Positions 570-61,180 of a stretch of DNA of 64,000 nucleotides are shown piece by piece. A model generated the notes under the pieces. That model saw only the letters and a program-made list of their open reading frames with translations. It was not told the origin of the DNA and ran no database searches. The position numbers were made by a program, and so were the translations under genes. The first letter of the stretch is position 1; each line of letters opens with the position of its first letter. Source of the DNA: Azorinus chamasolen (Eukaryota > Mollusca > Bivalvia > Cardiida > Solecurtidae); contig OY755247.1 of NCBI GenBank assembly GCA_963576725.1, positions 11,923,034-11,987,033 on the forward strand. The letters run 5' to 3'.

Positions 570-798
570 TTAACCCTTTCCTCCATAGGCTAATTTTAGA
601 CCCAACCTCTTTGAAATAATCTACCGAAAAGGACTATTAACTAGAGAAAAGGAAAATTTTAGAATTTTGTAGTTTGAATCCATTGTGATAAATAGAGCAT
701 TTGCTCCTATAAGAGCAAATGCTTTATTTATCACAATGGCTTCAAGAAGTGACTTTTACAGAGGCATAGAAAGGCGTATTTATGGAGGAAAGGGTTAA
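570..798 (+). mobile_element. A-family hairpin MITE
   Basis: TTAACCCTTTCCTCCATA at the left, TATGGAGGAAAGGGTTAA at the right. The core palindrome is at about 675-742, GCATTTGCTCCTATAAGAGC with one mismatch at the centre. Confidence 0.88.
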
Positions 799-913
799 AA
801 AGCTCCTGTAGCAGACCTTTGATCAGGGTTTGCCAGAGGTTTGCTTATGGTAATATATAAATCTTATTCAGTATCTGCAATGTTTTCAAAAGCTATTATA
901 AAAACTCAACACA

Positions 914-1361
914 TTAACCCGTTTATTTCCATATAAATGTGTTTTAATGCAAATGCAAACAGCATAGACCCAGATCAGAAGGCTCCTATTCGAGCTATCT
1001 GATCAGGGCCTGTTCTGTTTGCTAGTGGAATTTGAAAGATTGGTTTCTTTACTTTCTAAAATGGCTACAATTTATCACCTTCCATGTTTCATTATAGCTA
1101 TTTTGTCTAGGAATGTTCTGTAGGTATTGCAATTTGGAGTAAATATAGAACTGGGAAATAAATACGCCTTTCTACGCCTCTGTAATAGTCACTTCTTGAA
1201 ACCATTGTGAAAAAAATAGAGCATTAAATTTTGCTCTATTTATCACAATAGTTTCTATACTACACAATTATAACATTTTCCTTTTCTCTAGTAAATGCTT
1301 CTTTTCAGTAGATTCACTCAAAGAGGTTGGGTCTAAAACAGCCTATGGAGGAAAGGGTTAA
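914..1361. mobile_element. B1 element fused to an inverted A element
   Basis: TTAACCC at 914 starts a B1 copy with its GCAAACAG..CTGTTTGC stem. About 1160 it passes, without a TTAA boundary, into an A copy in reverse orientation whose right end is the first unit of the 56-bp tandem array. Confidence 0.7.
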
Positions 1362-1641
1362 CAGTAGATTCACTCAAAGAGGTTGGGTCTAAAACAGCCC
1401 ATGGAGGAAAGGGTTAACAGTAGATTCACTCAAAGAGGTTGGGTCTAATACAGCCTATGGAGGAAAGGGTTAACAGTAGATTCACTCAAAGAGGTTGGGT
1501 CTAAAACAGCCTATGGAGGAAAGGGTTAACAGTAGATTCACTCAAAGAGGTTGGGTCTAAAACAGCCCATGGAGGAAAGGGTTAACAGTAGATTCACTCA
1601 AAGAGGTTGGGTCTAAAACAGCCCATGGAGGAAAGGGTTAA
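1306..1641 (+). repeat. Six tandem copies of a 56-bp unit
   Basis: Units of exactly 56 bases start at 1306, 1362, 1418, 1474, 1530 and 1586 and differ at only a few sites. Each is the terminal part of an A-family element, from AGTAGATTCACTCAAAGAGG through TATGGAGGAAAGGGTTAA, so this is satellite-like growth from a transposon end. Confidence 0.95.
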
Positions 1642-1813
1642 GGAAACCACATCCAGATCTTATTTAGGAACCCAACCAGTTTTCATGTTGAGGAGGAACA
1701 GCAAACAAAACATTGGCTGGTATTTACATGGGTTCACCAAACAGAGCAGACTCTGATCAGAGGGCTCCTTCAGGATCCCTTTGACCTGCATCTACACTGT
1801 TTGCCTATCTGTT

Positions 1814-2042
1814 TTAACCCATTCCCTCATAGGCTATTTTTAGATCCAACCACTTTGAATAAATCTACGAAAAAGGAGCATTAACTAGAGAAAAGGAAAT
1901 TTTCAGAATTTTGTAGTCTGAAACCATTGTGATAAATAGAGCATTTGCTCCTATAGTAGCAAATGCTCTATTTATCACAATGGTTTCAAGAAGTGGTTAT
2001 TTCAGAGGCGTAGAAAGGCGTATGTATGGAGGAAAGGGTTAT
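1814..2042 (+). mobile_element. A-family hairpin MITE
   Basis: TTAACCCATTCCCTCATAGG at left; right end TATGGAGGAAAGGGTTA with the last base of the TTAA changed. Core stem GCATTTGCTCCTATAGTAGC at 1922-1987. It ends about 115 bases from exon 6 of the CARD-like gene. Confidence 0.87.
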
Positions 2043-2158
2043 GAGACACTGGGCACAAAGGGGTTACTATTCATGATGTCATTATGTCTTACATTAATAT
2101 TCATGATGTAAAGCATTAAGGTTGGGTAATAGGGGAAATAATAGGGGAAATAATTTAC

Positions 2159-2278
2159 CTGAGGCCCTGCCACCTGCTATCGGATCTCTCCGAGTGTCTG
2201 AAGACTCTTGATTTCGTCTGTATACAACAGTTGGGATAGATGATGGCCTTGGTACTTCATCTCTGGGAAATGCTTGAT
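2159..2278 (-). CDS. CARD-like gene, coding exon 6, second copy of the repeated exon
   Basis: Acceptor TTATAG, donor GTAAAT, phase 1 at both ends, 120 nt. It encodes RDEVPRPSSIPTVVYRRN and ends GGRAS. It is two codons longer than exon 5. The shared intronic flank ACAATGTCTTCACTGTTTGC lies just outside both acceptors. More copies may lie beyond the window. Confidence 0.66.
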
Positions 2279-2726
2279 CTATAATACAATGTCTTCACTG
2301 TTTGCACTCTGTATTGAGTATACCCAAATCAGATGATCCTGTAGGAGCTGCCAGATCAGGGTCCATGCTTATAAAGCTTTTAGTTGAGTCTGAGTTTCGT
2401 TCTCAGGCTTTTAATTGGTCAGATTTGAGTTCTCAAGCTTTTGATTGGTCAGATTTGAGCCAAAGGCTCAAATAGAGCATTTAGATATACTTCTTTACTT
2501 TTCAGAATTTTGTAGTTTGAAATCATTGTGATAAATAGAGCATTTGCTCCTATAGGAGCAAATGCTCTATTTATCACAATGGTTTGAAGAAGTGGTTTAG
2601 AAAGGCGTATGTATGGAGGAATGTCATTCAACTTCAAAAGTTGTGCACAAAAATATATAATATACATGTATATCATAAAAATTTGCACTGTTTACATATA
2701 AAAATGTATACATTATCATACATGTA

Positions 2727-2788
<62 letters not shown>

Positions 2789-5700
2789 GTTGAGATATAT
2801 ATACATTCACAGATGACCACGTAATACTCTAACAATTCAACCAGTAGAATACGGCAACTCCGCCTAGCAAACTTGCAGACTGTAAATATAGAACAAGGAA
2901 ATCCAGATCCCCAATAGGAAAGCTTTCAATCCCTGCTTATATAGACAGTCTATCAGAGCTTACACTTCTACCGGTTGAATTAATTTGCATCTTTCTGTAT
3001 GTTCTCTTGACAAGGCCTTATTTAAGGTTTCCTTTTAATATCAATGACATACCATCACTTAGATCGATCAGAAAGTCGCTGGATCACGAATGATACACAA
3101 ATTATATATATATATATATATTCTACCCAGATTTTTACAGAAATCCATGGACATGTTTAGCTTAACTCCGAAATGACTCTGAATCAATCATAAAACAATA
3201 GTATGAGTATTAATTACATGTTCACAATGCTTAGTCAAACTGACACACAGATTTTGTCAAAGGTGACTGAATCTGCAATGAAAAGAAGAAAATACAAATT
3301 CGGGTGAATGATGGATGCATTTCTATTGGTTTTGCAGCGATCAATGTTTTTCTCATTTTATCGATACAAAATCCAGTGCTACACAAATACTAAAATCATC
3401 ATTTCTCCATCAATCCCTATGTTGTGACCACTCTTTAAAGTTGTCTAGAAGAGACGATTCTAAAGTGTGGGCACAATGTAGGGTTTGGTGGAGAAGTAAA
3501 AAAGTTATTCTTGAAAATGTTTTAATTTACACATCTCATCTTGACCTCTGAAAATATTTTCTTACCCCATTCTTTAGCACTTAGTAAATTTCAAGTCACA
3601 TAGTTTTCAATTCTGAAGTCATTTTGTTACACAAAATTTGCAAAATACATCTTTAATCCATTCCCTCATAGACTGTTTTTAGAGTCAACCTGTTTGAATA
3701 AATCTACCAAAAAGGAACATTTACTAGAGGAAAGGAAATGCTAGAATTGTGTAGCACAGAAACTTTTGTGATAAATAGAGCATTTGCTCCTATAGGAGCA
3801 AATGCTCTATTAATCACAATGGGTTTCAATAGGTGATTTTTACAGAGGCGTAGAAAGGCGTATTTATGGAGGAAAAGGTTAATCATCATGAATTTCATGA
3901 TCGTTATCATTATCAGACTCTTGATTCCTCATGGATATTGGACCGACAAATTTTCATCCAGCCAGCTCTATCTCGTGTCTTTCTAAGCAGATCTGGCATT
4001 TCAAGGGCTGTCTACTCTTTAAACCTTTACTCCATAAATACGCTTTTCTATGTCTTTTTAAACAGAGTAGACCGAAAGCCGTCTGATAAGGGTCTGCTCT
4101 GTTTGCTTATGATAAACATCTAATATAGATATGATTCTATAGTTTTTGCAATGGCCAAAATATCCTGCATCATGTGCTATTTTAACTATGAATCTAATTA
4201 ATATCTTCCTGATGTCATTATTTCTGACATGAGTATTCATGTAGTAAAGGGTTAAACATTTATTCCATAGACACTCCTGAATAACCCTAAACAGAGTAGA
4301 CTCAGTTTTGAATGGTTCCTGTAGGAGCTCTATGATCAGGGTCTGCTGTGATTGCTTATAGAATTATATACATAGAGGATCTTACATGAGTGTTCTTGAT
4401 TATTGGATTTATTAAATGAGTCTTTTTAAAACGATAAAAAACGAGCTTTAGCGAGTTTTTTATCGTTTTAAAAAGACTCATTTAATAAATCCAATAATCA
4501 TGAACACGAATGCAAGATCCTATTTATAACATAACACACACAAATGTTATTTGCAGCAAATATTTCAGCAGTAACGTGGATTGTTATAAATTCTCCTTAC
4601 ATATAGAAATGATGAATGAAAGGTGTTATTAGGTTCGCTAGGTAACTGGGACAAAGTAGGTCAAAATTTTCCAACTTTTTTTTTACTTACTGTCATATCA
4701 ACCAGGATCTAATTCAGACCTCTCTGGTATTCAATTTAACTGTGATAGTTTATGATACAAAAACATACAGAAACACGTAAAATAAATTTACAGTTTTGAC
4801 ATACATAGATACAAACACGTCACATTATGACGTCATTGTACACAACATGTGTCTATGTAAAGCGCGCCATTTACATGAAGACCCACATACAGTCGCCAAC
4901 ACGTCCGACACTCACTGTCAATGGGATTCGAAATGCGCCTTCGTTTTGGTATATTAAGCCCTTCATTAGTGTTGTATGCATACACATGGACATGGACATT
5001 ACCACCGAGAAAAAAATCTCGATTCAAGTTCAGTGAAAATGTTTGAAATGGACAAAAGATTCAGTACGAACTGCTGCATAAAATGTGTTGGAACAGGAGG
5101 AAGATTTTCGCAATCAGCTGAGTTAGTGAGTATAGCATATTTGAAATATATTTGTGCTGTGCTGGATTCAGATGACTATAGTTGTTGATTGATGAGATAT
5201 TTGTATGAGTAGAAATCTGCATAAACAAAAGGACATGCGGTGAAGAAAATGCAAAGTTGAGGAGGCATTTTAAATGTAGAATGGATTGTATGGGTCAGAG
5301 TAGCTGGTAGATCTTTTTTGGCATACATTTTGTATATGATTCCTGACAGCGATTACAATTTGTATTATTTTATCGAAATTAAGGCGCAAGTGCCAACAAT
5401 CCTTTGCCATCTATCGTGACTCAATCGTGGACAGGTAGGTCGACCACCGTCTGCCAGTTTGTTTGTTTTGACGGCGCGTATGAATCGTTCGAATGTCATT
5501 TGGTCGTTCGAATGTTATTCACTAGTGAATAATTATATGCCCATGATTATCAAAAAATAAATGATAGTGTTAAGTCACGCTGAAGCCACGAGTTATGTTA
5601 TAAATGTATGTCTCCTATAGGAGCTGTCTGATCAGGGTCTGCTCTGTTTGCTAATAAAATTTGAAAGATATGCTTCTTTACTTTCTAAAATGGCTACAAT

Positions 5701-8700
5701 GTTCCACCTTCCATATTTTGTTATAACTTTTTTTTCCATGAATATTTAGTAGGTATTGAAATTGGAATAAACATAGAACAGGGAAGGGGTTAATATTCAT
5801 GATGCCGTTATTTCTTACATGAATATTCATGATGTAAGGTGTTAAGATCAATAATAGGGAAAATAATTCACCTGAGCCCCGGCCATCCGTTGTCGGATCT
5901 CTCTGAGTGGCTGAAGACGCTGGATTTCGTCTGTATAAAACAGTCGGGGAGGATGACCGTCTTGGCACTTCATCTCTGGCTTTATCTGTAAAATTTATTT
6001 TTTTAACAATGTCTTCACTGTTTGCACTAATCCTGTAGGAGCTGCCAGATCAGGGTACACTCTGTTTTAATGTGGAAATTGTACAAAACATTTGGGAGCA
6101 ATCTGATATGGGTCTACTTTGTTTGCAAAGGTTTATAGTTTTAGTACAATAAAGATGGTTATAAAGATGGTTATTGAGATTGCATTGTAGAGTATGAAAT
6201 GACAAGACTTTGGCAATTCCTTATTGGCTTTGCTAAATCTGTCTTCACCTATATCCTCCTACTGAATATTCATATAAGAAATAATGACATTATGAAATTT
6301 AATATTGATAATAGAACATAAACACAGGAAGTTTTGGCCATGGCAGAAACTAGAATTATATCTACACTATTTCATAAGCAAATAGAGCAGACCCTGATAA
6401 GACGGCTCCTAATGAATCCATCAGATCTTGGTCTACTTTGTTTGCAAAGGCAAAGAAAGGCGTATTTTTTAAGTAAAGGGTTAAACAATAATTAAAAAGA
6501 TGTTTAATTATGGGTCTTTAAGACAACTGGTAGCCTAGTACAGGATAAACGTGATATAGAGAGTACTAAAATCATCATTTCTCCCCTAAACACTATGTTG
6601 TGACCACTCTCTATAATCGCCTCAAAGAGATGATTCTAACGAGTGGTCACAATAGAAGGTATGAAGGAGAAATAATTGATTATTCTTGAAAATGTTATAA
6701 TTTTCTCTGTAAGATATCAAACAGTGTAAGAGGTCCAGATAAGATGCGTAAATTAAAACATTTTCATGCAAGAATAATTCTTTTATTTCTCCATCGAACC
6801 CTATGTTTTGACCACTCTTTAGAATCGTCTCAAAGAGACAATTCTAAAGAGTGGTCATAAAATATGGTATGGTGGAGAAATGACGATTTTAATATTTGAG
6901 TATGTGCCTTTATCTGTAGCTATGATTACATACCGTAAGCAAATAGTAGGGATTCAAGTAAAACTCCAAGTTACTTGGTATTTGGCATCAGAACCCAAAC
7001 TGTCTGATTCTATATCAAAATATTTTTTAATAAAACCAGAGTGTGTTTGTGAAACACTTATGCCTCGACCTTTTACCCCGAAGGATGACCTTGACCTTTG
7101 ACCGATAGACCAGGGAGTTGAACGCGACACATTATCTTTGTGTGGTGAACATTTGTGCCAGGTTATTTTTTAAATCCACCGGTAACATGCTTCTCATTAC
7201 CCTTGCCCAGTTCAATGAAATGATGACACCATGATTATTTATTAGCTGATATAATAATATTATAATTTTAACTTTTCTAGGGAATCTTTGCTTGGGCAAA
7301 AAAAATGTAGAATCAGATCTATATCATGTCACAAGCAAACAGAGCAGACTCTGGTCAGATGGCTCCTATATGAGCCATCTGATCTGGATATGTCCTGTTT
7401 GCAAATGTGTGAAAAAGCATTTACATGAGGGGAAAAGGGTAACTCCAGAGCCATGAAAACGGGTCTGTGATATCATATGCAGACAGTTTGGAACCAGATG
7501 AGATGCCAAATAACCCGGCGTCTCATCAGCATCCAAACTGTTTAAGCCATTCCTTCATATTGACGCCTTTTGACACCTCTGCAAAAGTCAGCTGTTGAAA
7601 CCATTGTGATAAATAGAGCATTTGCTCCTATAGGAGCAAATTAATGCTCTATTTATCACAATAGTTTCAAACCACAAAATTCTAACATTTTCCTTTTCTG
7701 TAATTAGTGCTCCTTTTCGGTAGATTTAGTCAAAAGAGTTTGGATCTAAAAATAGCCTATGAGGGAATGGGTTAAAAATCCGTTTATATTTTTATTAAGA
7801 CATTGAACAAGTGTCCACTTTAAAACTTAATGCAGACAACAATGCTGGGCCTTTACCATACCTTTATCGTTCCCAGGATCGTCATGATCTGAATCTGATT
7901 CCTGCAAGAAAATTAATACATTATTTATTATCTTTGTTCTTTTGCATGTACATAGTTAATGTCTCATAAAGATAAAACTAGAAAATTGTGTCTTTAAGAC
8001 ACAGCGATGCCCCCGTGGTGGTGCTTGCCTAGCTGCACGTAAAACTCCTAAGTTGTTTGACCTTGACCCTGGGCGTGCAGGCATTCTATCCTTTGTAAGC
8101 AGTGTGACAAAGTCTAAATTGGTGAGGCAAGCAGGAACTTCAGGTATAGACTTGATGAACATAAGATTTTTTTAAAAACTTTACACAATCATAAAGAAAC
8201 CATTGTGATCCTATAGGAGCAAATGCTCTATTTATCACAATGGTTTCAAACTACAAAATTCTAAAATTTTACTTTTCTCTAGTAAATGCTCCTTTTGGGT
8301 AGATTCGTTCAAAGACGTTGGGTCTAAAAATAGCCTATGAAGGAAAGGGAGTTTAGAAGGGTTTACTGTACATGTATGCATTTCATCAAGATTTAAACTA
8401 TTTGACACTCTGATTGTAGTTTTGAAAAAAAAATGTTCTGGAAAAATGAAGCAGGTGAAAAATTATGCAGGGGAAAATTCCTATAGGCATGCAAAGAATT
8501 AATCCATTTCTTCACAGGCTATATTACTATCTTCTGAACTGGTGCATTTACTAGAAAAAGGAAATTTTAGGATTCTGTAGTTCTGAAATAGGAGCAAATG
8601 CTAATTATTTATCACAATGATTTCAAAAGCGATTTTACAGAGGAATAAAAAATAAAAAATGAGGGAACGAGTTAAATAAATTTCTACTCACATCGTCTTC

Positions 8701-11700
8701 AATACCAAGTCTACGCTTTTCCTTTTTTATTTCTTCTAGCACCTTTTTCAGTCCCTCTTTTCCATTCTTTTTCTTTTCGTAATATTTCCTGTAGATAATA
8801 TGACATGACAATGTGGAATTTCCCTTGTACATGTATCGTGTTGGAGGACAGGGCTTCTCCATATCGAGGGCTTGGTGCAAAACTATTCTAACTCCTTCAC
8901 AAAGTGAGGGAGTTAGAATAGTTTTGCACCAAGCCCTCGATATATGGCTAGCAGCCCGGGATAAAATAACAGAGGTCCAGATAAGATGCGTAAAAGTAAC
9001 AGCTCCTTTATTTCTCCACCTATACTGTGACCACTCGTTAGAATCATCTAAAAGATATTATTCTAAAGAGTGGTCACAGTATAGGGCTTGGTGGAGAAGT
9101 GACGATTTAAGTATTTGGGTACACACCTTTACCCGTAGCTCTGAAATAAACACCCAGACAACTGTGAACAATGAAGCAGTGAAATGCAGTAGAATGCAAA
9201 GAAAATGGTCCAAAATACAGTAAAACCATTCTAAACCAGAATTCTAGCAGAGAAAAATTCAGATACTTTTAGGCAGATGGTTGCTAAATGCAGGATGAAA
9301 GTCATGCAGAAAGCTCCTACAGGAGCTTTCTGCATGACTTTCACCCTGCATTAAGCAGTCACCTGTCTTCAAGAGTCAAGACTGATATTTATACTAAATT
9401 TACAAAAGGTATTTCTCCATTGTTTGATTCTGAAGCCAAGATCAGAGTGTCAAACAGTTTGGACAGAGTGTCAAACAGTTTGGAGCCTGACGAGGCGTCA
9501 AGTTACTCTGTGTCTCATCTGGATCCAAACTGTCTGCTTGTGTAATCAGAAATTCACTGCTAGCAAGTAGCGACGTCTGCAAAATGTTATAAGGCACAAA
9601 TGTCAAAATGCAGCTGAAAAAATACTGAAAAATCAAATTCCCACCTAATCAGAAGTAATTAACTAAAATTTTTGATAATAATTTTTGTTGACATTACTAG
9701 TAGTGGGGTCTTTTCAGGATCCAAACTGTTTGACAGTACAGTAACTGATTTTAAAAGAAACGCAAGACAAATATTATTTCAACCCCTTCCTCCATAGGCT
9801 ATTTTTATATTCAACCACCTTGAATAATTCTACTGAAAAGGAGCATTAACTAGAGAAAAGATTTTTTTCTAGAATTTTGTAGTTTGAAACCATTGTGATA
9901 AATAGAGCATTTGCTCCTTAGCAAATGCTCTATTTATCACAATGGTTTCATAAAGTGACATTTACAGAGGCGTAGAAAGGCGTATTTATGGAGAAAATAA
10001 TGACTATAAAGATGACTAAAAATGACTATCAAGAATATTTATTAAAGTACATGTAATTTTAATAATGGTGGTACGCATGAATGTTTGGTATTGGTAGAAA
10101 GTATAGAGCTAGATCTACGAGGCTTGATCGGAAATCATTGAGACATTGGCTATTTTTCCAGATCTATTGAACGTACATCTCCAAAATTCTATACACACAG
10201 ATAGATAACATTCATAATTCATGCGAAACAAAAAGATATCATCTATTTACTACGATGCGAATTTAATATTTCCTAAACTTGTCCCGGTTGCAGATACCCG
10301 GAGCACGACGCCAGCACATGTATTTATGAACATACCTCTTTTATACGATTTGCAAGTTCTTATAGAAAAGGCGGGTGAACGTTGTTGTATCTAACTAGAA
10401 TAAACCGTCAAAATTATGACGTCACTTTGTCAACGTTATGCGCAGTTTGAACGATTTATAAAGAAGTTTAGTGCTTTTACTTGAAATTGCAGACATCAAA
10501 GTTATGCCAGAGATATGGAATCTGACGTCAAGGCGGAGCAGCCGAGCTACATCAAAATCTGTGTAGAGCTCGGAAAGACACCTGTGGAAATGAAGAAAAT
10601 GCTTGAAAAGACTAGATGCGGTAATGAGGTTTCGCATGCGTTAGTATATCGCTGGCACAAAAAATTTGCGCAAGATCCATCAACTCCACTAAAGTCCAAA
10701 GGTACAGGACGGCCGACAATCGTCTGTGAAAGCTTAACGACAAACATAGCCAGTTACATAAAACAAGATGCGCGTCAGACTGTGTGGGACTTTGCACTGA
10801 AAAATGATATCGGGGTAGCAACAGCTCATAAAATTTTGACCGAACATTTAAACATGTGTGTATGATAAATGGGTACAGCGACACATGAAGTGCATCAAGT
10901 TAGACTGTATTTACTTCCAGAAAGAGTAGTATGGACAGGTAATGTGCAGGCATAAATAACGCACAGACGACGTCGTGTTCATAACGTTGCTGTGCGCCGG
11001 GTCTTATTGGGTCATGCACTTCCAAGAGACACTGTAGTAAAACCAGAGGTGCTAGATCACAGCTTTTTTCGCCCGCTGATAGTAAAATCATGCATCTGTT
11101 CCGCTGGAAAAACGTCTGTCTCTTTTCTTGCGTTCAATATCTAGAGTGTCTCAATAATTTCCGAACAAGCCTCGTACATATAAATTCATAAGCAAAAAGG
11201 AGTGGTCTGATTGGGGTCTACTCTGTTTGCAGAGGGGTGAACAAGTGTCTGTATGAGGTAAAGTATTATGCCTTTACCACATACACCCTTTGCAAACAGA
11301 GCAGACCAACCCAGATAGCTCTGGTAGGAGATGTCTGATCAGTGATCATCACGGTCTGGTCAGTTTACTTCTGATACTATACAGATCTGATTTTACAGTT
11401 TCTTCCAATACCAAAACATCCTGTGTTCATAATTATGCCATTATGAAATTCAATAATCAGCTAATAAATATTCATTGTGTAATTATCTCTTACTTCTCTG
11501 TTTGCAAATACGTGAAAAGGCGTTTATATGAAGGAAAGGGTCAATTATTATCATTATTATTATACCACATTTATATAGCACTCGATCTTTTCACACAGGA
11601 TATTATGCGTTCAAAAGCATTAATCTAATCAATATTGATGATGTCAATATTTCTTACATGAAAATTGATGGAGTAAAGGGCTAAAGTTAACCCTTTCCTC

Positions 11701-14700
11701 CAAAGGTTATTTTTAGATCCAACCCCTTTGAATGAATCTACCCAAAAGGAGCATTGACTAGAGAAAAGCAAAATTTTAGGATTTTGTAGTTTGAAACCAT
11801 TGTGATAAATAGAGCATTTGCTCCTATTCAAGAAGTGGTTATTACAGAGGTGTAGAAAGGCGTGTTTATGGAGGAAAGGGTTAACCCTTTCCCTCATATA
11901 AACGTATTTTCAAGCATTTGCAAACACAGTAGACCCAGATCAGACGGCTCCTAGAGGAGCCGTCTGATCAGGGTCTGCTCTGTTTGCTAATAAAATTTGA
12001 ATACTCGGTTTCTTAACTTTCTAAAATGTCTACAATGTTCCACCATCCATATTCCTTTATAACTATTTTGCTAATGAATATTCAATAGGTATTGAAATTT
12101 GGCCAAAATACAGAACAGGGAAAGGGTTAAACATTAATACTGAGCCTATGTCTTACCTTGTTTCCCTAATCAAACGCTGTGCAATCGCTTTCTGTTCAGT
12201 TTTACATAGAGCAGCTATAAGAGTGTAAAAACTCTTCGGTTGCGAACGTATACAGTCAAAAAACAAACTGGACGCATGTGGCTCCCCCTGTTGAGCTGCT
12301 TGAGCCCTTATTTTTCCATTTAAATGAGCAGAAAATTTGAGGAATGGCAGAAGATCTACAACAAAAAGAAAATTACAGTAAAAACCCCTAAAAAAAAGGG
12401 TAAAGTGGTCAGTCTGTTAGGCAGGAGGTAGCTTAATAACCCTTTCCCTGTTGAATATGCATGTAAAATATAATGATATAGTTTTATTGGCAGCAGTTTT
12501 GTAATGACAGGTGTACGGAGGAAATTTTGGTATTGATAGAAACTGTAAATGTCAGATTTATCTTAACTTCATCAGCAAGCAAAACAGACCCTGATCAGAT
12601 GGCTCCAACAGGAGCTTTATTCAAACTTTATTTAACCCTTTCCTCCAGAAATACACCATTCTAATTATTTGCAAGCAGAGTAGATCCAGATCAGAGGGCT
12701 CCTATCAGGGTCAGCTCTGTTTGCATATGGAATTATATAAATCTGGTTTTACAGTTTCTAAATTTAGCAAAAATTGCATGTGTTAATATGCTATGTATAG
12801 TTATGGTTCTACATACAGTTCTGCCATTGCCAAAAAAGCATGTACCAATGTGCCATTATAACAATTAATCAAATTAATATAATACATGTACAATCATGAT
12901 GTCATGATTTTTTTCATGAATATTTATGGATAAAAGGGTTAAACGGACCCATGTTGATGCCAGAAAAGTTGTGACATTTTGAAGAAAATTGATTTCTTTA
13001 TTTCAAATCTAACTATTGGTACTATACAATTTATAAGCAGGTACTGTACCTAGTCCAAATCACAGGTGTTCGGCGTGTGCTACCCCCCCCCCCCCCCCAA
13101 ACACACACACACCCTACAACCCCCTCTACAACTCAAAAAATGAATATAAGACACTAAAACACGCATACATATGGTCAAATCATCTTAACATAGCATAACA
13201 ACCAGTTAAAATGAAAAATAAGCTTGTGTGACTGTCAAATGATTTGGACCACAGGTGTTCGGTGCATGCTGATCCCTCACCCCCGCCCACCCTACCCCAC
13301 CCCCTCTAAAAACCAAAAAAAAAATTTTTAAAAAAAAGACACTAAAACACACTAAAATATTGTCAAATCATCATAACATAGCATAACAACCAGTTTCTGA
13401 CAAACACCCCTCGGTGTCAAAATATACATGTATCAGGAATGTAGACATTTTCATGGAAAAGATGCCTCTATTGAAATAATAACCAACAATAACCACTGTC
13501 ATTCCAATACTCTAGCTATGTCTCTTTAAACATCAAACACGAGTTGGTCGGAAAAGATCTGATAGATTCGAAAGCACCATTTGACAAGAGGAAAACTGTG
13601 TAAATTCGATATAGACCAACGATTTATCTATCCATATTAACACATGTGGGTATTATTATGCACTCACCATCATAAAGTTCGTGCCTCGCTGTCTAACAGT
13701 CGTGAAACTGCCAATAAATTTGAACTTGATTTTCATATAACAACAATGACAGCCGCTGATCTATATCACCGGACACGTTTGACTCCAATGCCCGCATTAC
13801 ACAACAAGCCCCTGGCTGACGTTAATGGTGATCTCGGCTCTATCAGATCTTGTCCGACCAAAGTGTGTTTGTTGTTTGAAAAGGCATAGCTATTGTATTT
13901 GAAGGGCAGTGATTATTGTTGGTTTTCATTTTAATAGAGGCATCTTTTCCATGAAAAAAGAGCCACACGTTGTTAAGATTGATCAAGATTTAGCCAAGTT
14001 ACAGGCTTTAGAGCAAGTACGGATGGTGGTGATTTCTATCGGGGTTTCATGTCTACCTTCCTATGATTTACTTTGACACTGAGGGGTGTTTTAATTGTCA
14101 AAAACTGATTGTTACCCTAAGTTAAGATGATTTGACCATATTTTAGTGTGTTTTAGTGTCTTTTTTTAAAAAAAAAATTGTTTGTTTTTTAGATGGATAG
14201 GCGGGTGGGGTAGGGTGGGCGGGTTTTGGATCAGCATCATGCACCTAACACCTATGGTCCAAATCATTTAATTGACAGTCACACAAGATTATTTTTCATT
14301 CAAATAACCCTAGCTATAACCATTCTTCATTGTGTTTTTCACCATTCATAGTCATATTTAGTGTTGTCTGCTGGCATGGTCCTTCGTATTTCGCAGGAAT
14401 GATAAAAGTGAAAAACAATATTATTATTAAAAATTAATAGAAACAAAAAAGTTATAAAATGTGATGAAGAACTATAAGTACAGTGTTATATTTCGAAATA
14501 CATAAGTTTTATATAGTAGAACTAGTACTTTACCAGCAGGTAATTGAAGCTCAAGTACTCGGGTCAAAATATGCTAACTGCACCAGTAAAGTAATTGTTC
14601 TTGTACCAATGCCAAAGGTAGATTTTGTAGGAAACCACTGCATGTAAACAATGAGTATTGTGACCGAAGATTTATTTTTATACTATACAGTTGAACGACC

Positions 14701-14798
14701 TGCATTTTTCGGGATTGGCACTTACCGTATAGGTGAATTATGCCGTTAATCTCTGGTTCAACATTCTTTATTATTGACTTTACATCGTCAAAATCCAT
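2159..14798 (-). CDS. CARD-like death-fold protein, 5' six coding exons, continues beyond left edge
   Basis: Six exons on the - strand join in frame through GT-AG introns: 14798-14726, 12355-12157, 8788-8692, 7901-7862, 5985-5872 and 2278-2159. The product so far is about 195 residues. Residues 1-95 look like a CARD: a run of amphipathic helices with LLPFLKF, HASSLFFDCIRSQP, SFYTLIAAL and TEQKAIAQRL spaced as in CARD helices 2-6. A lysine-rich helix (EGLKKVLEEIKKEKRR), an acidic stretch (ESDSDHDD) and two Ser/Arg/Pro-rich repeats follow. CARD proteins assemble by like-like contacts in apoptosis and innate immune signalling; that role here is inferred from fold resemblance only. No stop is reached, so the C-terminus lies outside. 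An in-frame TAA just upstream supports the ATG at 14798. Confidence 0.7.
2349..2625. mobile_element. F half-palindrome joined to a truncated A element
   Basis: The F left arm (GGTCCATGCTTATAAAGC) runs exactly to its centre (GAGCCAAAGGCTCAAA, about 2475) and then switches to A-family sequence, whose stem GCATTTGCTCCTATAGGAGC lies at 2522-2588. The A element's left end is missing. Confidence 0.78.
2730..2786. repeat. (TA)n microsatellite
   Basis: About 28 uninterrupted TA dinucleotides. A shorter run lies near 3105-3120. The stretch 2800-3650 otherwise shows only a half C-family hairpin near 3390-3500 (TTGTGACCACTCTTTAAAGT). Confidence 0.95.
3653..3882 (+). mobile_element. A-family hairpin MITE
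   Basis: TTAATCCATTCCCTCATAGA to TATGGAGGAAAAGGTTAA. Stem centre GCTCCTATAGGAGC near 3792. Confidence 0.87.
4019..4255 (+). mobile_element. B2-family hairpin MITE
   Basis: TTAAACCTTTACTCCATAAA to GTAGTAAAGGGTTAA. The left half of the stem is shortened (AACAGAGTAGACC then GCCGTCTGATAAGGGTCTGC). A second partial B2 follows to about 4370. Confidence 0.82.
4376..4521. repeat. 146-bp near-perfect palindrome
   Basis: The arms begin AGGATCTTACATGAGTGTTC and close with GAACACGAATGCAAGATCCT. The core is TAAAACGATAAAAAACGAGC paired across a spacer TTTAGC. It belongs to none of the named families. Confidence 0.9.
4830..4837. promoter_or_regulatory. TGACGTCA (CRE-like) motif
   Basis: A perfect cAMP-response-element octamer in a locally repeat-free part of the intron. 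Similar TGACGTCA octamers also occur inside the foldback arms near 16120 and 16660, so it is not by itself evidence of a promoter. Confidence 0.3.
5039..5125 (+). CDS. Weak candidate coding exon, antisense within the CARD-like gene intron 5
   Basis: An ATG opens 29 codons (MFEMDKRFSTNCCIKCVGTG and onward) that stop at a good GTGAGT donor (5126). The surrounding 4550-5600 lacks the hairpin families that fill the rest of the intron, and a TGACGTCA motif lies 200 bases upstream. No downstream exon was found, so this is only a suggestion. Confidence 0.18.
5610..5793 (+). mobile_element. B1-family MITE, left-truncated at the stem centre
   Basis: Starts at CTCCTATAGGAGCTGTCTGA, so the left arm is missing, and runs to AACAGGGAAGGGGTTAA. 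A short B2 right end follows to about 5845, close to exon 5 of the CARD-like gene. Confidence 0.78.
5872..5985 (-). CDS. CARD-like gene, coding exon 5, first copy of a repeated exon
   Basis: Acceptor TTACAG, donor GTGAAT, phase 1 at both ends, 114 nt. It encodes a basic, Ser/Pro-rich stretch with RDEVPRRSSSPTVLYRRN and ending TDGRGS. About 26 of 38 residues match exon 6, and the flanking intron bases also match, so the two arose by segmental duplication. Confidence 0.68.
6250..6484 (-). mobile_element. B2-family MITE, reverse orientation
   Basis: Body with GAATATTCATATAAGAAATA and stem AGAGCAGACCCTGATAAGAC, ending AAGTAAAGGGTTAA. The left TTAA is lost. Confidence 0.75.
6566..6925. mobile_element. 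Two C-family hairpins side by side
   Basis: Stem 1 (6580-6670) and stem 2 (6785-6885) each pair GACCACTCTTTAGAATCGTC-like arms across AAGAG. Their outer flanks GGTCCAGATAAGATGCGTAA and TGAGTATGTGCCTTTATCTG are the C-family ends. Confidence 0.78.
7030..7200 (-). repeat. Bivalve interspersed repeat (J family), reverse copy
   Basis: GGATGACCTTGACCTTTGAC and TTGTGTGGTGAACATTTGTG match the complement of the copy at 29995-30220. Confidence 0.75.
7325..7441 (-). mobile_element. B-family MITE fragment with intact stem
   Basis: Stem GCAAACAGAGCAGACTCTGG ... CTGTTTGC with centre GGCTCCTATATGAGCC, right end CATGAGGGGAAAAGGGTAA. Confidence 0.75.
7466..7775. mobile_element. E hairpin fragment followed by an A-family MITE
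   Basis: The E stem (CAGACAGTTTGGAACCAGAT with CATCCAAACTGTTTAAG) runs to 7541. The A element 7542-7775, in reverse orientation, is bounded by TTAA on both sides. Its stem centre has gained TTAAT (GGAGCAAATTAATGCTC). It ends 86 bases from exon 4 of the CARD-like gene. Confidence 0.8.
7862..7901 (-). CDS. CARD-like gene, coding exon 4, 40 nt acidic exon
   Basis: A 40-nt exon between TTGCAG and GTATGG encoding ESDSDHDDPGNDK. Phase 0 in and phase 1 out match both neighbours, which supports it despite its size. Confidence 0.6.
7970..8160 (-). repeat. Bivalve interspersed repeat (I family), end fragment
   Basis: AGACACAGCGATGCCCCCGT and GTGCTTGCCTAGCTGCACGT are the complement of the right end of the I-family copy at 26910-27515. 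Confidence 0.75.
8196..8350 (-). mobile_element. A-family MITE, reduced left arm
   Basis: GAAACCATTGTGATCCTATA passes straight to the centre, so most of the left arm is deleted; the right arm and body to AGCCTATGAAGGAAAGGG are kept. Confidence 0.78.
8499..8675 (+). mobile_element. A-family MITE, degenerate
   Basis: TTAATCCATTTCTTCACAGG to GGGAACGAGTTAA. The left stem arm is deleted, leaving GGAGCAAATGCTAATTATTT. It stops 16 bases from the donor of exon 3 of the CARD-like gene. Confidence 0.78.
8692..8788 (-). CDS. CARD-like gene, coding exon 3, lysine-rich helix
   Basis: Acceptor CTACAG, donor GTGAGT, enters in phase 2 and leaves in phase 0. It encodes KYYEKKKNGKEGLKKVLEEI then KKEKRRLGIEDD, probably a charged helix. 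An A-family element ends only 16 bases beyond the donor. Confidence 0.7.
8862..8943. repeat. 82-bp palindrome
   Basis: TATCGAGGGCTTGGTGCAAA pairs with its complement over about 38 bases per arm, with centre TCACAAAGTGA. It is a singleton in the window. Confidence 0.92.
8969..9142. mobile_element. C-family hairpin element
   Basis: Ends GAGGTCCAGATAAGATGCGT and CACACCTTTACCCGTAGCTC. Stem TACTGTGACCACTCGTTAGA pairs with its complement at 9063-9092. Confidence 0.83.
9218..9395. mobile_element. D-family hairpin element
   Basis: Starts ACAGTAAAACCATTCTAAAC; the stem CATGCAGAAAGCTCCTACAG pairs with its complement to TTCACCCTGCATTAAGCAG. The right terminal repeat is missing. Confidence 0.8.
9447..9545. 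mobile_element. E-family hairpin fragment
   Basis: GTCAAACAGTTTGGA occurs twice, then TCTCATCTGGATCCAAACTG closes the stem. Confidence 0.65.
9783..9992 (+). mobile_element. A-family MITE
   Basis: CCCCTTCCTCCATAGGC to GGCGTATTTATGGAG. The stem is almost perfect with centre GCTCCTTAGC. The terminal TTAAs have mutated. Confidence 0.82.
10118..11174 (+). mobile_element. Decayed mariner-type DNA transposon, 1057 bp
   Basis: Terminal inverted repeats of about 28 bp (CGAGGCTTGATCGGAAAT at the left, the complement of CGAGGCTTGTTCGGAAAT at the right) are flanked by TA on both sides, the mariner target duplication. Inside is a transposase N-terminus and no intact DDE/D domain. At 1.06 kb it is shorter than the usual 1.3 kb. 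It lies in intron 2 of the CARD-like gene. Confidence 0.88.
10515..10865 (+). pseudogene. Mariner transposase remnant, N-terminal DNA-binding part
   Basis: A 116-residue open frame has two helix-turn-helix-like parts: YIKICVELGKTPVEMKKMLE and VSHALVYRWHKKF, then the GTGRP linker and KQDARQTVWDFALKNDIGVA. This order is that of mariner transposases ahead of the catalytic core. The frame stops at 10865 and the following 300 bases carry stops in place of the catalytic domain, so the gene is inactive. Confidence 0.85.
11687..12130 (+). mobile_element. A element and B1 element sharing one TTAA
   Basis: A at 11687-11884 has lost its right stem arm: GCATTTGCTCCTATTCAAGA jumps from centre to outer body. 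It ends GGAAAGGGTTAA, and the same TTAA (11881-11884) begins the B1 copy 11881-12130, whose stem (GACGGCTCCTAGAGGAGCCG) is intact. B1 ends 27 bases from exon 2 of the CARD-like gene. Confidence 0.87.
12157..12355 (-). CDS. CARD-like gene, coding exon 2 (residues 25-91), core of the domain
   Basis: Acceptor TTGTAG, donor GTAAGA, 199 nt, open throughout. It holds the diagnostic run DLLPFLKFSAHLNGKIRAQA followed by HASSLFFDCIRSQP and SFYTLIAALCKTEQ, matching the CARD pattern of helix, gap, Leu-rich helix, a Phe/Tyr helix and a final AxxL helix. The intron before it holds a 1.1-kb inverted-repeat element. Confidence 0.72.
12632..12942 (+). mobile_element. B2-family MITE with internal expansion
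   Basis: TTAACCCTTTCCTCCAGAAA to GGATAAAAGGGTTAA. The stem has a collapsed centre (GAGGGCTCCTATCAGGGTC). Confidence 0.8.
13210..14300. mobile_element. Inverted-repeat (foldback) element, about 1.1 kb
   Basis: Left arm 13210-13422 and right arm about 14073-14300 are inverted copies (TGACTGTCAAATGATTTGGA against the complement of TCCAAATCATTTAATTGACA). A second inner inverted pair lies at 13451-13479 and 13929-13957 (GGAAAAGATGCCTCTATT). A partial direct copy of the left arm occupies 13050-13209, including a C-run at 13081-13098. No transposase is readable. It sits in intron 1 of the CARD-like gene. Confidence 0.8.
14726..14798 (-). CDS. CARD-like gene, coding exon 1 (residues 1-24)
   Basis: ATG at 14798, with in-frame TAA two codons upstream. 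It encodes MDFDDVKSIIKNVEPEINGI then IHLY and ends at donor GTAAGT (14725 downwards), phase 1. It would supply helix 1 of the death fold. Confidence 0.68.
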
Positions 14799-15608
14799 CC
14801 TTTAATAAATCTGATGTCAATGAAAACCCTACTTTCGCTTTCGGTAGGCTGGGTCTAAGCCAACACAGGTCAATTCGTACCTTAGCCATTTCGAACTGTT
14901 AATTCTATCACGAAGTCAATACAGATGTATTTACTTCGTGATTCTATCTATCTATCTATATTGTGTCCCCTTCTGCTGTATTACCGTTCCCCTTAGCAAA
15001 ATAATGGTCATAAAAACAATTACTTTAAATGCAACAAGAAGCTTCCTTGAAGTGAGAAAAATATTTTTCTAACGGAAAATAACACTTTAAGTAAACAAAT
15101 AACCCATATATTTCGATATCGATACTGCCCAACTCCGCATTCGCATATTTATAAGTATTCTGAAAACCTAGGATCTCACTCGAGATTATAATTATATTTC
15201 TACTAAGGAACTACTAGTAGGTTCTCGCTGTTTATTTGCAAACTGCGAGATTTTAGGATCTCTAACGAAATCCGTTGTTTATTATGCGAAGGCATTGTCG
15301 TCAACGTTCTTCTAAAATGTCGTTTATCAATTCAGATCTGGCGCGAAAATTTTGTTCGTTTCATCTCAAATAGCGGAAAATTCTGCATCATCTGTGACTG
15401 TCTCGTTTTACTAGCCAATCAGAAGGCAAAGTTATGTCATGTGATTTCATTTCGCATTTGTCATTTACATCCATCATTTGGAATATTCCCTAGCAATTTA
15501 TAATACAATTGGCAAAAGGCATTTCGCATTACAATTTATACAATTGGCAAAACGCATTTCGCATTTTATATTATGCAATTAACATTGCAGAATGGCGTTC
15601 CATGGATC

Positions 15609-15764
15609 CGGAACACCTCAGCCATTTCTATCGAAATAGAACTCTGACGGAATACGGCGAGTATTTACGATTGCGGGCGCAGCCACTCGGAACACCTCAG
15701 CTATTTCTATCGAAATAGAACTCTGACGGAATACGGCGAGTATTTACGATTGCGGGCGCAGCCA
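15609..15764 (+). repeat. Two tandem copies of a 79-bp unit
   Basis: Units start at 15609 and 15688 with CGGAACACCTCAGC and each ends GATTGCGGGCGCAGCCA. They form the doubled left end of the foldback element. Confidence 0.9.
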
Positions 15765-17784: not shown

Positions 17785-17818
17785 TGCCAAAAGTAAAATA
17801 ACAACTAAGTATACTCTT

Positions 17819-21610: not shown

Positions 21611-21856
21611 TTAACCCTTTCCCTGTTCTATGTTACAAATTTCAATGCCTACTCAATATTCATGGACAAAATGTCTATAATGAAATATGGGAGGTGGAAC
21701 ATTGAAGCCATTTTTAGAAAGTATAGAAATTGATCTATCAAACTCCATTAGCAAACAGAGCAGATCCTGATCAGATGGTTCCTATAGGAGCCATCTGATC
21801 TGGGTCTACTCTGTTTGCAGATGCGTGAAACACGTCTATATGAGGGAATGGGTTAA
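21611..21856 (-). mobile_element. B1-family MITE, nearly intact
   Basis: TTAACCCTTTCCCTGTTCTA to TATGAGGGAATGGGTTAA, with stem GATGGTTCCTATAGGAGCCA. Confidence 0.9.
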
Positions 21857-22143: not shown

Positions 22144-58703
<36,560 letters not shown>

Positions 58704-58759
58704 ATTATAGATGTAATGATAGAAAGGACATTAAAGGAGTCAGGCTGGAATCAGAATCA

Positions 58760-59273
58760 CTTAACACTTTACTTCATAGAAATAAATTTTACACCCTTGC
58801 AAACAGAGTAGAATCAGATCAGATGGCTACTTATAGGAGCGGTCTAAGGGTCGTCTCTGTTTGCTTTATATGGAATAATATTGATCTAATTCTACAATTT
58901 CTGCACTGGCCTAAAGTTTGTGGTCATTGCCATTACAAAAAATCATCTAATTAGAATTCATTGTGTAATTATTTCTTACATGAATATTCATCAGGTAAAG
59001 GTTTAACCCTTTCCTTCATATAAATGCATTTTCATGCAATTGCAAACTGAGTAGACCCAGATCAGACAGCTCCTATAGAAGCCGTCTGATCTCCTATAGG
59101 AGCTGTCTGACCATGGTCTGCTTAGTTTGTTTTTGACATGATATAGATCTGATTCTACAGTTCTTGTCAAAGCAAAAATAGTCCTTGAAAGGTTTACATT
59201 TTAAAATTTCAGCTGATAAATATTAATGATGTCATTATTTCGTACATGAATATTGAACAGGGAAAGGGGTTAA
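58760..59273. mobile_element. B2 then B1/B2 chimera after EFTUD2
   Basis: B2 58760-59006 (TTAACACTTTACTTCATAG to ATCAGGTAAAGGTTTAA). The next, 59003-59273, has a doubled right arm (GAAGCCGTCTGATCTCCTAT AGGAGCTG) and ends GGGAAAGGGGTTAA. Confidence 0.8.
58781..58786 (+). promoter_or_regulatory. Possible EFTUD2 polyadenylation signal AATAAA
   Basis: The first AATAAA after the stop codon, 78 bases downstream. It lies within the left end of a B2-type element, so the signal may be donated by the element. Transcript ends are not visible from the sequence. Confidence 0.4.
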
Positions 59274-59358
59274 TTGGCCCTAGCCAGACCCTTTTTCATT
59301 GAGGCAATTGTAATGAATACAAAATAAGAAAGGGATTAATTTAGGACTAATGTGTTAT

Positions 59359-59890
59359 TAGCTTTGCAAACAGTTTGGACACAAATCGGACACATCTTAC
59401 CAGGATCCAAACTGTTTGACAATGAGGCCTGGTGCCTATAAAACTATGCTCAAGCTCCAGATTGGCGAGGTTTTGACATAGTCAAGATCTGACTGATCTG
59501 ATGCGCGAGTATGAGCTATGTGTACTCCAAATTATGTAAGCTTTAGTCAAAATATGACTGGGAAAATGCTTGAGAATGAAAGTATACTCAGACTCAAAAA
59601 GTTTTATAGGTACCAAGCCTGATTATTTTGAGAGAAAAAAAGATTGTGTAGTATGTGTTTAAACCCTGCTTTACTCCGTGAATATTCCTGTCAGAAATTA
59701 TGACCATAAATATTCATTACCTGATTTCATATATTCATTTACCTTGGCAGCAACTGTTGAATTAGATTTATGTTCTTTCATCAGGAAACAAAGCAGGCCC
59801 TGATCAAATCGTCTGATCTGTGTCTACTTTGTTTTTTGTTTGCTGTTTGCAAGGTTGTCAAGAGGGAGTATCATTAATGGAATGTGTCAT
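59359..59890. mobile_element. E fragment, F-like fragment and B2 fragment
   Basis: E stem GCAAACAGTTTGGACACAAA at 59364; TTTTATAGGTACCAAGCCTG near 59600 echoes F ends; B2 body 59660-59850 with AAAGCAGGCCCTGATCAAAT. No gene is seen here. Confidence 0.6.
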
Positions 59891-59903
59891 TCGGAAAGGT
59901 GTT

Positions 59904-60133
59904 TTAACCCATTCCCTCATAGGTTATTCTTAGGTCCAACCTCTTTGAATAAATCTACCAAAAAGGAGCATTTACTAGAGAAAAGGAAACTTTTAGAATT
60001 GTGTAGTTCTGAAACCATTGTGATAAATAGAGCACGAAGAAGGACATCAGGCGATCACAAAAGCTCACCCTGAGGAAATGCTCTATTTATCACAGTGGTT
60101 TCAAAAGATGACTTTTACAGAGGAAAGGGTTAA
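59904..60133 (+). mobile_element. A-family MITE with foreign sequence at the stem tip
   Basis: TTAACCCATTCCCTCATAGG to CAGAGGAAAGGGTTAA. Both arms are present, but the centre is replaced by about 40 bases (60035-60074) matching the complement of the G-repeat start. Confidence 0.88.
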
Positions 60134-60279
60134 CCAACCCTTAATTAACCTTGGCAAGTACAGCTGATGGTTAATATCTCAAGCTCAGATAACTCAGAAG
60201 TAAAGGTTTGGTCCTTCCAAAATTTACATTACAGAATAGTTCTAAAATGTATCACTACGCATATCTAGCAACACATGTG

Positions 60280-60375
60280 ACAGCTTAATACAGGTCGAAA
60301 TTAATGCTGAAAGCTCCTTTTGGAGCTTGCAGCATTACTTTAGACCTGCATTCAGCTGTGAACTTAAAGAAATTG
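60280..60375. mobile_element. D-family hairpin fragment
   Basis: GCTGAAAGCTCCTTTTGGAG and GCAGCATTACTTTAGACCTG form the stem. Confidence 0.7.
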
Positions 60376-60785
60376 TTCAGAGTAGAGATTGGATGACTAA
60401 AATTTTGTTATGGCCCGTCGAAGTTTGAGATATCAAAGTTCATCTATAGCTTGTTTCCTGGTGAGTCAATGAGTACAGTGGTATCCCTGATCGGGTTTTA
60501 CATAAAACATAACAAATTTAAGCCTTTCATACTGGGACAGGCATGCACTGTCATTTAAAAACAGTGTTGACCCAGATCAGAGGGCACCTAGAGAAGCCCT
60601 CTGATCAGGGTCTGCACTGTTAGTCACTCAAAATCCTCTATCAAGTTTAAGCCTTTCATACGGAGTGGACTCTATATGGTTATACACTGATGGGCTATTC
60701 TATTCTGAAAATTCGGGGTTGAAAGGCTTTACAAAAAAGGAAACTAGCAACAGTTTCTGCCAACAGAATTTGCACAGTAAGCTAT

Positions 60786-61180
60786 GTGGACCAAAGTAGG
60801 ACTCCAGATAAGAGGGGCAAGATGAATATTTGACAACAATGTGTTCAACAATTTTTCCACCGATTCCATATTTGTTACTACTCATTAGAACTGTCTTAAC
60901 CCATTACATAATAGGCTATTTTTAGATACAACCTCTTTGAATAAATATACCAAAAAGGAGCATTAACTATAGAAAAGGTAAATTTTAGAATTTTGTAATT
61001 TGAAACCATTGTGATAAATAGAGCATTTGCTCCTATAGGAGCAAATGCTCTATTTATCACAATGGTTTCACAAAGTGACATTTACAGAGTTGTCAAAAGT
61101 CGTCAATATGAGGGAATGGGTAAAGACTATGCTAATGAGTAGTCACAGTTATGAATTTGGTGGAGAAATTTGCTGCTTTA
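60786..61180. mobile_element. C-family hairpin split at its centre by an A-family MITE
   Basis: The C left arm TTACTACTCATTAGAACTGT is separated from the right arm GACTATGCTAATGAGTAGTC by A (60896-61124), whose TTAA start and TAAA end sit exactly at the C centre. Confidence 0.86.
60896..61124 (+). mobile_element. A-family MITE nested in C
   Basis: TTAACCCATTACATAATAGG to AGGGAATGGGTAAA, with perfect stem centre GCTCCTATAGGAGC. Confidence 0.88.

What the first reader, a model, noticed from the sequence alone, without database searches (positions are those of the whole stretch)
570..61124. Unrelated hairpin families share one dyad centre, GCTCCTATAGGAGC
Family A (arms from GCATTT, TTAA ends), family B (arms from GACG and GCAAACAG, TTAA ends) and family D (arms from CTTTCTGCATGAC, TA ends) have no arm similarity, and D even belongs to a different insertion class. 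Yet their palindromes close on the same 12-14 bases: A at 3792, 30785 and 61040; B at 21783, 51180 and 57330; D at 9318, 23371 and 57522. C, E and F do not share it. Either the centre was spread by conversion at hairpin tips, or it is a functional site (protein binding, or a fold-back primer that generates palindromes). I know of no described rule that fixes the centre of unrelated MITE palindromes. The likeness is seen; the mechanism is inference.
Basis: partly seen in the sequence, partly recalled or inferred. Interest (0 to 1): 0.88.

Follow-up and report, generated by a model that had tools for sequence, protein, structure and literature searches.

The report
Mobile hairpins sharing one exchangeable tip
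Several kinds of small jumping DNA hairpin in one animal genome end in the same 14-letter tip, and rare half-and-half copies suggest that tips can be swapped between different hairpins and the two arms then made to match again.

Summary
The shared centre is real. GCTCCTATAGGAGC has 48 near matches in the window (0.14 expected) and 178,273 exact copies in the 1.72-Gb genome (reversed control 0), at the tip of three hairpin arm families, A, B and D.

Two corrections. A and B are not unrelated elements: one end of each agrees at 37 of 40 bases; only their hairpin arms differ. And the centre is not fixed: the same strict B arms carry other GC-rich tips at 10,704 sites against 47,113. Arms and tips are modular.

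112 sites match an A arm joined to a B- or D-type arm across the centre. Of 13 read, 9 are half-and-half hybrids, 2 are short tip patches (D-in-A, A-in-D) and 2 are not hybrids. Arm changes tend to be mirrored: for one A variant 6 two-sided sites were listed where 0.14 is expected.

I favour tip exchange by template switching, then copying of one arm onto the other (about 0.45). Deep common descent, a protein-binding site and convergence remain open. No symmetrical transferred tip was caught, and hybrids may follow from an already shared centre.

The parts
3653..3882 (+). A element, TTAA-ended, hairpin centre 3786-3799 (exact)
30643..30871 (+). A element, hairpin centre 30776-30789 (exact); left boundary from repeat alignment
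60896..61124 (+). A element, hairpin centre 61029-61042 (exact), arms of 35 bases fully complementary
570..798 (+). A element used as family query, centre 703-716 with one mismatch
57252..57495 (+). B element with TTAA at both ends, inserted inside a D element at a TTAA of the D arm; hairpin centre 57318-57331 (exact)
51006..51255 (-). B element, centre 51176-51189 (GCTCCTAGAGGAGC)
21611..21856 (-). B element, centre 21778-21791 (GTTCCTATAGGAGC)
57183..57630 (+). D element, both ends TACAGTAAAACCTCTC, split by the nested B element; hairpin centre 57520-57533 (exact)
23265..23472 (+). D element, TACAG..CTGTA ends, centre 23362-23375 (GCTCCTCTAGGAGC)
9216..9373 (+). D element, left end TACAGTAAAACC; palindrome 9266-9373, centre 9313-9326 (GCTCCTACAGGAGC); right end of element not located
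40863..40893 (+). B-type arms (GATGAGA..TCTCATC) with a different tip (CCGCATACTGCGG): similar arms, other centre
59069..59103 (+). B hairpin in which the centre is present twice, each with one mismatch (59069-59082 and 59090-59103), as slippage or template switching at the tip would leave
8207..8220 (+). Centre (one mismatch) of an A hairpin in which most of one arm beside it is deleted, by eye

Best explanation
The 14-bp centre is the tip of hairpins carried by very abundant non-autonomous DNA transposons. A and B belong to one TTAA-inserting group with piggyBac-like ends; D is a TA-flanked group with CAGTAAAACC ends. Hairpin tips are an exchangeable part. While DNA is copied or repaired, a strand at a hairpin tip switches to another hairpin and switches back, leaving a short foreign tip (patch), or does not switch back and leaves a half-and-half hybrid. 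One arm is then copied onto the other by fold-back synthesis at the tip, which restores a perfect hairpin with a new tip and old outer arms. Such elements can amplify, so one tip can end up in several arm families and one arm family can carry several tips. Shown: modular combination of arms and tips, hybrids and patches, mirrored arm changes, and sharing of element ends by A and B. Inferred: the switching mechanism, its order, and that the centre first reached D (or A/B) in this way.
For: Same centre on three arm families, and other tips on B-type arms. 112 sites match an A arm joined to NNTCTG (B- or D-type) across an intact centre, control 0. Of 13 that I chose and read, 9 are half-and-half (7 A with B, 2 A with D3), 2 are patches and 2 are B elements with a deleted arm. 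Patches: L085 is an A element whose right arm is A for 24 of 25 bases and then D2 for the last 17 of 17 (12 of arm, 5 of centre); L086 is a D element whose left arm is D2 for 30 of 32 bases and then ends as A (27 of 30 in an overlapping alignment), its right arm being D2 (39 of 42). Differences between subfamily consensus arms are mostly mirrored: D1-D2 6 of 7, D2-D4 10 of 10, B-Bs 7 of 10. For one A variant, 6 mirrored sites are in the first 100 rows where 0.14 is expected; they lie in more than one A end type, by eye. Template switching is published as a way to create and maintain perfect hairpins (PMC8794818, passages read).
Against: Hybrids are rare and may simply be deletions or repair between neighbours through 14 bp that they already share, so they show what happens now, not how the centre first moved. 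The search for D bases with an A tip gave 3 sites, none symmetrical. Locally, 0 of 168 classified hairpins are mixed and 0 of 286 assignable half-arms are discordant. Within a copy the two arms are hardly more alike than arms of different copies (A 0.884 against 0.888; B 0.725 against 0.745; D1 0.907 against 0.873), so arm correction is not frequent after insertion. The A variant used for the mirroring test was picked because it had been seen on both sides, so it is a favourable case, and some shared descent of its copies cannot be excluded. Whether the other tips also occur on other arms, and whether B x D hybrids exist, could not be tested: those searches did not complete.
Confidence: 0.45

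Rival explanations
1. Deep common descent. The hairpins of A, B and D come from one ancestral palindrome whose arms diverged in lockstep (mirrored changes) while the tip changed more slowly. D acquired the hairpin once by recombination or nested insertion.
For: One A end and one B end agree at 37 of 40 bases, up to the hairpin base, and arms are of similar length (A 34-36, B 39-46 bases among the longest pairs). B and D share CAGA..GCTCCTA, 11 of 13 half-site bases (consensus). Seven columns agree in A, B and D2 in register, p=0.0056 uncorrected, the best of five triples tried. Lockstep divergence is seen between D subfamilies.
Against: No pair of arms between families is clearly alike (p 0.0385 to 0.995 by the two scores). 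In B the arms stay the same while the tip changes, the opposite of a slow tip. Core-less D elements are only 40 sites (up to 2 mismatches), and the five read carry differing D-type ends (of one only the right-hand end lies in the stretch read), so they look like losses rather than an ancestral state.
Confidence: 0.2
2. A functional two-fold symmetric site. A dimeric protein binds GCTCC..GGAGC. piggyBac-type transposases bind short palindromes inside the transposon end through their C-terminal domains; a host protein could serve both classes.
For: In piggyBat and piggyBac, two cysteine-rich domains of the dimer bind a palindromic sequence just inside the end; in piggyBat it is imperfect with an A/T-rich centre (PMC11707139, passages read). 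A and B centres lie about 89 and 73 bp from one end. The half-site GCTCCT is kept while the central two bases vary, in B and D1 above all.
Against: Strict B arms do without the centre at 10,704 sites. D ends and TA flanks are not piggyBac-like, so its transposase would not need the site. No binding evidence exists. The tip is not clearly better conserved than the arms within families.
Confidence: 0.15
3. Structural convergence plus chance. Hairpin tips are selected, or survive, as GC-rich clamps with a short loop, and D and A/B hit the same one independently.
For: Tips seen here are mostly GC-rich with short loops; this tip is among the most stable 7.6% of 7-base half-sites by composition. Of seven other tips (13 to 17 bases, so not equal in length) six are more stable and one about equal.
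Against: Given a stable tip, the chance of the same GCTCC is about 0.5% per pair of families (my arithmetic), several percent after allowing for the number of families; the additional CAGA match of B and D lowers it further.
Confidence: 0.15
4. Fold-back capture of new arms: the centre is a short inverted repeat that repeatedly primes the making of new palindromes from whatever lies beside it.
For: Short inverted repeats are reported to seed palindromes (search listing with abstract starts only).
Against: Only 138 of 178,273 sites have C/G then C/T beside the centre on both sides, against about 5,800 if arms were random (my arithmetic); each of the 20 read shows A, B or D arms on at least one side, by eye.
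Confidence: 0.05

Closest known systems
Template switch mutations in hairpins (Monttinen and Loytynoja 2022, PMC8794818; passages read)
   Same: Perfect stems created and kept by copying one arm onto the other; mirrored (compensatory) changes; four-base and some stable loops enriched among such changes.
   Different: There in RNA genes; here in transposon hairpins at very high copy number, with exchange between different families as well as between arms.
piggyBac-type TTAA transposons, piggyBat and piggyBac (PMC11707139; passages read)
   Same: TTAA sites; palindromic sites inside the transposon end.
   Different: Here long hairpins of about 70 bp; no transposase was examined; site binding unknown.
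Kolobok and KolobokP (PMC9587614; abstract and passages read)
   Same: TTAA target duplications; animals; KolobokP is rich in bivalves.
   Different: Kolobok termini are 5'-RR..YY-3'; A and B have 5'-CC..GG-3'. A and B (about 230-250 bp) are shorter than the KolobokP terminal repeats of about 450 or 660 bp.
pogo/Tigger-like MITEs of the Tc1/mariner group (recalled, no call)
   Same: TA flanks and CAGT..ACTG ends in D.
   Different: The assignment rests on recall of end sequences; no transposase was linked to D.
Palindrome formation at short inverted repeats (search listing only)
   Same: A short inverted repeat as fold-back point.
   Different: The listed reports concern rearrangement and gene amplification; here arm families are few, so free capture of arms is not the rule.

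Membership tests
TTAA-inserting, piggyBac-type MITE (A and B) | TTAA target duplication | tested here: met
   One case: the B element 57252-57495 lies inside a D element exactly at TTAA, with TTAA on both sides and D sequence continuing
TTAA-inserting, piggyBac-type MITE (A and B) | CC..GG ends next to TTAA rather than 5'-RR..YY-3' | tested here: met
   Consensus TAACCC..GGGTTA; the contrast with Kolobok is from PMC9587614; that CC..GG is typical of piggyBac is recalled
TTAA-inserting, piggyBac-type MITE (A and B) | Moved by a piggyBac-family transposase | not tested
   The one transposase search did not complete
Kolobok / KolobokP | 5'-RR..YY-3' termini | tested here: not met
   A and B termini start CC
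pogo/Tc1-mariner-type MITE (D) | TA flanks and terminal inverted repeats | tested here: met
   Consensus ends ACAGTAAAACC..GGTTTTACTGT; TA on both outer sides at 57183-57630 and 23265-23472; no empty site was compared
pogo/Tc1-mariner-type MITE (D) | Moved by a pogo/mariner transposase | not tested
   No transposase search was made for D
Template-switch evolution of hairpins | Excess of mirrored arm changes | tested here: met
   one variant, picked as a favourable case; no clear excess within single copies of A, B or D2
Template-switch evolution of hairpins | Observed single-event switch with known ancestral state | not testable with these tools
   No second individual or related genome is held

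The most novel reading that the evidence does not exclude
Hairpin tips act as transferable units: exchange at palindrome centres, followed by re-symmetrising of the arms, lets a short tip colonise transposon families of different insertion classes, so that tips and arms evolve as a reticulate, modular system at very high copy number.
Probability: 0.35. Interest if true: 0.8.

Novelty: new variant of a known kind. Interest (0 to 1): 0.6.

Why it matters
How palindromic MITEs arise and stay perfect is, as far as I know, open. This genome offers 178,273 copies of one tip, several arm families, several tips on one kind of arm, and hybrids, so template switching between and within hairpins could be measured directly. 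It would also mean that likeness at a palindrome centre is no proof of common descent of the element.

Tried and rejected
Core of D as a TTAA insertion: the D core is flanked by TTAA on both sides, so I looked for empty sites. Only 40 were found (up to 2 mismatches), and the five exact ones, the only ones read, lie in D-type elements with differing ends, so they look like separate losses; one of the five (L073) shows only its right-hand D end in the stretch read. The idea that D's centre came in as a TTAA element is not supported.

Homology of arms across families: not clear in pairs; lowest p 0.0385.

Ongoing arm-to-arm conversion in each copy: not seen for A, B and D2; a slight excess for D1 and D3.

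Fold-back capture of new arms as the main source: argued against.

Rfam at gathering threshold: no match in the window. Viral and prokaryote collections: no match to B or B/D patterns, not informative for an animal.

Papers: 8 searches. In the listings (titles and abstract starts) I saw no rule that fixes MITE centres; two searches listed nothing; the library lacks most subscription journals. Three papers were opened, in passages.

Never answered: B x D hybrids; the CCGCAT tip on other arms; the loose count GCTCCNNNNGGAGC (asked once); the piggyBac transposase search (asked once).
Full report
What was checked. In the window, 48 sites match GCTCCTATAGGAGC with at most 2 mismatches, against a mean of 0.14 and a largest value of 1 in 100 dinucleotide shuffles. 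By eye, 10 of these are A, 5 are D and the other 33 are B or B-like. The window belongs to a 1,723,440,353-base assembly in 137 contigs, which holds 178,273 exact copies; the reversed control has none. In 200 kb taken at round-number positions on contigs 1-7 there are 22 exact, 33 one-mismatch and 26 two-mismatch sites; the genome mean would give about 21 exact. The species was not identified; that it is an animal is inferred. A reading frame at 57816-58211 has an EF-G C-terminal domain; of 120 listed relatives 9 bear a name, 8 of them U5 snRNP component.

The carriers. A elements are about 229 bp and B elements about 245 bp, with ends TTAACCC..GGGTTAA. A B element at 57252-57495 sits inside a D element exactly at a TTAA of the D arm, which shows the TTAA target duplication directly in one case. 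D elements are about 208 bp, TA-flanked, with ends ACAGTAAAACCTCTC..GAGAGGTTTTACTGT and the palindrome in the middle. In A and B the hairpin is subterminal. One A end and one of two B end types agree at 37 of 40 bases (33 of 36 without TTAA; 0 of 20,000 shuffles); the other B type agrees at 30 of 40. So A and B are related elements that differ in their hairpin arms.

Arms. With up to 2 mismatches in GCTCCTNNAGGAGC, 238 centres were collected from the window, the 20 stretches and 30 loci that had been fetched for the exact centre. Both arms could be classified in 168 (B-B 109, D-D 38, A-A 21), one arm in 59, none in 11; none of the 168 joins two families. Of 476 half-arms, 286 could be assigned in both outer and inner part and none was discordant. 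Between families the arms are not clearly alike: ungapped p values run from 0.0385 to 0.68, gapped from 0.06 to 0.995. Two results lean towards old common descent: 7 columns shared by A, B and D2 (p=0.0056, uncorrected, the best of five triples) and CAGA..GCTCCTA shared by B and D (11 of 13; consensus).

Tips are exchangeable. Of 119 palindromes in 264 kb (20 clusters), only clusters of A, B and D type carry the centre. But the B cluster also holds B-type arms with other tips: of its 10 members without the centre that were printed, 8 have CCG tips. The types are CCGCATWATGCGG, CCGCCTTGAAAAGGCGG and GCCGAGTTACTCGGC; the arms with the last type are more diverged (GATGAGAC). A related one is in the window at 40863-40893 (the output was cut). 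Genome-wide, strict GATCAGACG arms carry CCG tips at 10,704 sites and the GCTCC tip at 47,113 sites. A D-like palindrome with tip GCGCCTTAAGGCGC is in L073. Most tips are GC-rich with short loops; by DNA energies the shared tip is in the most stable 7.6% of half-sites, and of seven other tips, unequal in length, six are more stable and one about equal.

Few arm types. Only 138 of 178,273 sites have C/G then C/T next to the centre on both sides; about 5,800 would be expected for random arms (my arithmetic). Of the 50 sites listed, 33 are the same on both sides. I read 20 of the 50, picked mainly among the symmetrical ones (17 symmetrical, 3 not); by eye each has A, B or D arms on at least one side, with small changes. 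The search pattern demanded a change on both sides, so this alone is no test of mirroring.

A test of mirroring. A hairpins with the exact 26-base core number 50,407. The variant with one T to G change, the other arm either normal or mirrored, gives 358 matches on the two strands. I picked this variant because one search had shown it on both sides, so it is a favourable case. In the 100 listed rows, 88 are one-sided sites and 6 are mirrored sites (two rows each). Extrapolated, that is about 315 and 21; independence predicts 0.49 in the genome and 0.14 in the listed part. The six mirrored copies were read and by eye lie in more than one A end type, so they are not one recent subfamily, though partial shared descent cannot be excluded. 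Between subfamily consensus arms, changes are mostly mirrored (D1-D2 6 of 7, D2-D4 10 of 10, D1-D3 4 of 6, D1-D4 5 of 6, D2-D3 8 of 9, D3-D4 4 of 5, B-Bs 7 of 10; the D4 consensus rests on 7 half-arms). Within single copies the arms are not clearly more alike than between copies (A 0.884 and 0.888; B 0.725 and 0.745; D1 0.907 and 0.873; D2 0.884 and 0.880; D3 0.906 and 0.860), so correction is not frequent after insertion.

Hybrids and patches. The pattern of an A inner arm, an intact centre and NNTCTG occurs 112 times, control 0. I read 13 of them, chosen to cover the main right-arm types. Nine are half-and-half: L076, L077, L079, L081, L082, L083, L084 (A with B) and L087, L088 (A with D3). 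Two are patches. L085 is an A element in which the last 17 bases of the right arm and half-centre are D2 (17 of 17) after 24 of 25 A bases. L086 is a D element in which the left arm ends as A after 30 of 32 D2 bases, its other arm being D2 (39 of 42). Two (L078, L080) are B elements with a deleted arm, not hybrids. D bases with an A tip occur at 3 sites, none symmetrical: L086; one D arm running into a whole A arm at GAAA; and one nested A with a deletion.

Explanation. The observations fit a cycle: a switch at the tip gives a hybrid or patch; one arm is copied onto the other; the new hairpin amplifies. The copying step is proposed for hairpins in RNA genes (PMC8794818, passages read). What is shown is modularity, mirrored change and possible intermediates. 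What is not shown is a finished, symmetrical transferred tip, or that the centre first moved this way. Hybrids could arise because the centre is already shared. The rivals are deep common descent, a binding site (piggyBac-type transposases bind palindromes inside their ends; PMC11707139, passages read) and convergence on a stable tip. None is excluded.

Novelty. The parts are of known kinds. The sharing of one tip by elements of two insertion classes, with several tips on one kind of arm and intermediates present, I did not see in the listings of eight searches, which cover only an open-licence library.

Noticed in passing
1306-1641: Six tandem copies of a 56-base unit that matches the left end of the A element including TTAA (98% matches): a transposon end turned into a small tandem array.
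   Followed up: no
L071-L075; 40 sites genome-wide: D-type elements that lack exactly the stretch between their two TTAA sites, leaving one TTAA at the centre; possibly excision by a TTAA transposase or deletion between repeats. In L073 only the right-hand D end is in the stretch read.
   Followed up: partly
L073: A D-like palindrome with a different tip, GCGCCTTAAGGCGC.
   Followed up: no
window 57252, about 12433 and a minus-strand D arm; L012, L030, L047: In at least six places an A- or B-type end begins at the TTAA position of a D arm, so hairpins of two classes lie nested in each other.
   Followed up: partly
57816-58211: Exon-like reading frame with an EF-G C-terminal domain; named relatives are mostly U5 snRNP component.
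   Followed up: partly
10485-10865: Reading frame of 126 aa that looks by eye like a mariner-type DNA-binding domain (recalled); no Pfam match at 0.01.
   Followed up: no
44647-45154, 40117-40416, 52199-52586, 52673-52980: Tandem arrays of 160-168-base units, about two to three copies each.
   Followed up: no
contig C8, among the first 100 rows: A-arm junctions with CATCTG on the right are listed seven times on contig 8, all on the + strand; a possible small local family. Three were read: two are hybrids with different flanks, one is a B element with a deleted arm.
   Followed up: partly
palindromes such as 6785-6881, 8861-8943 and, outside the window, L038, L041, L049: Other palindrome families here close mostly on three-base loops, often AAA or TTT, a second kind of recurring tip.
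   Followed up: no
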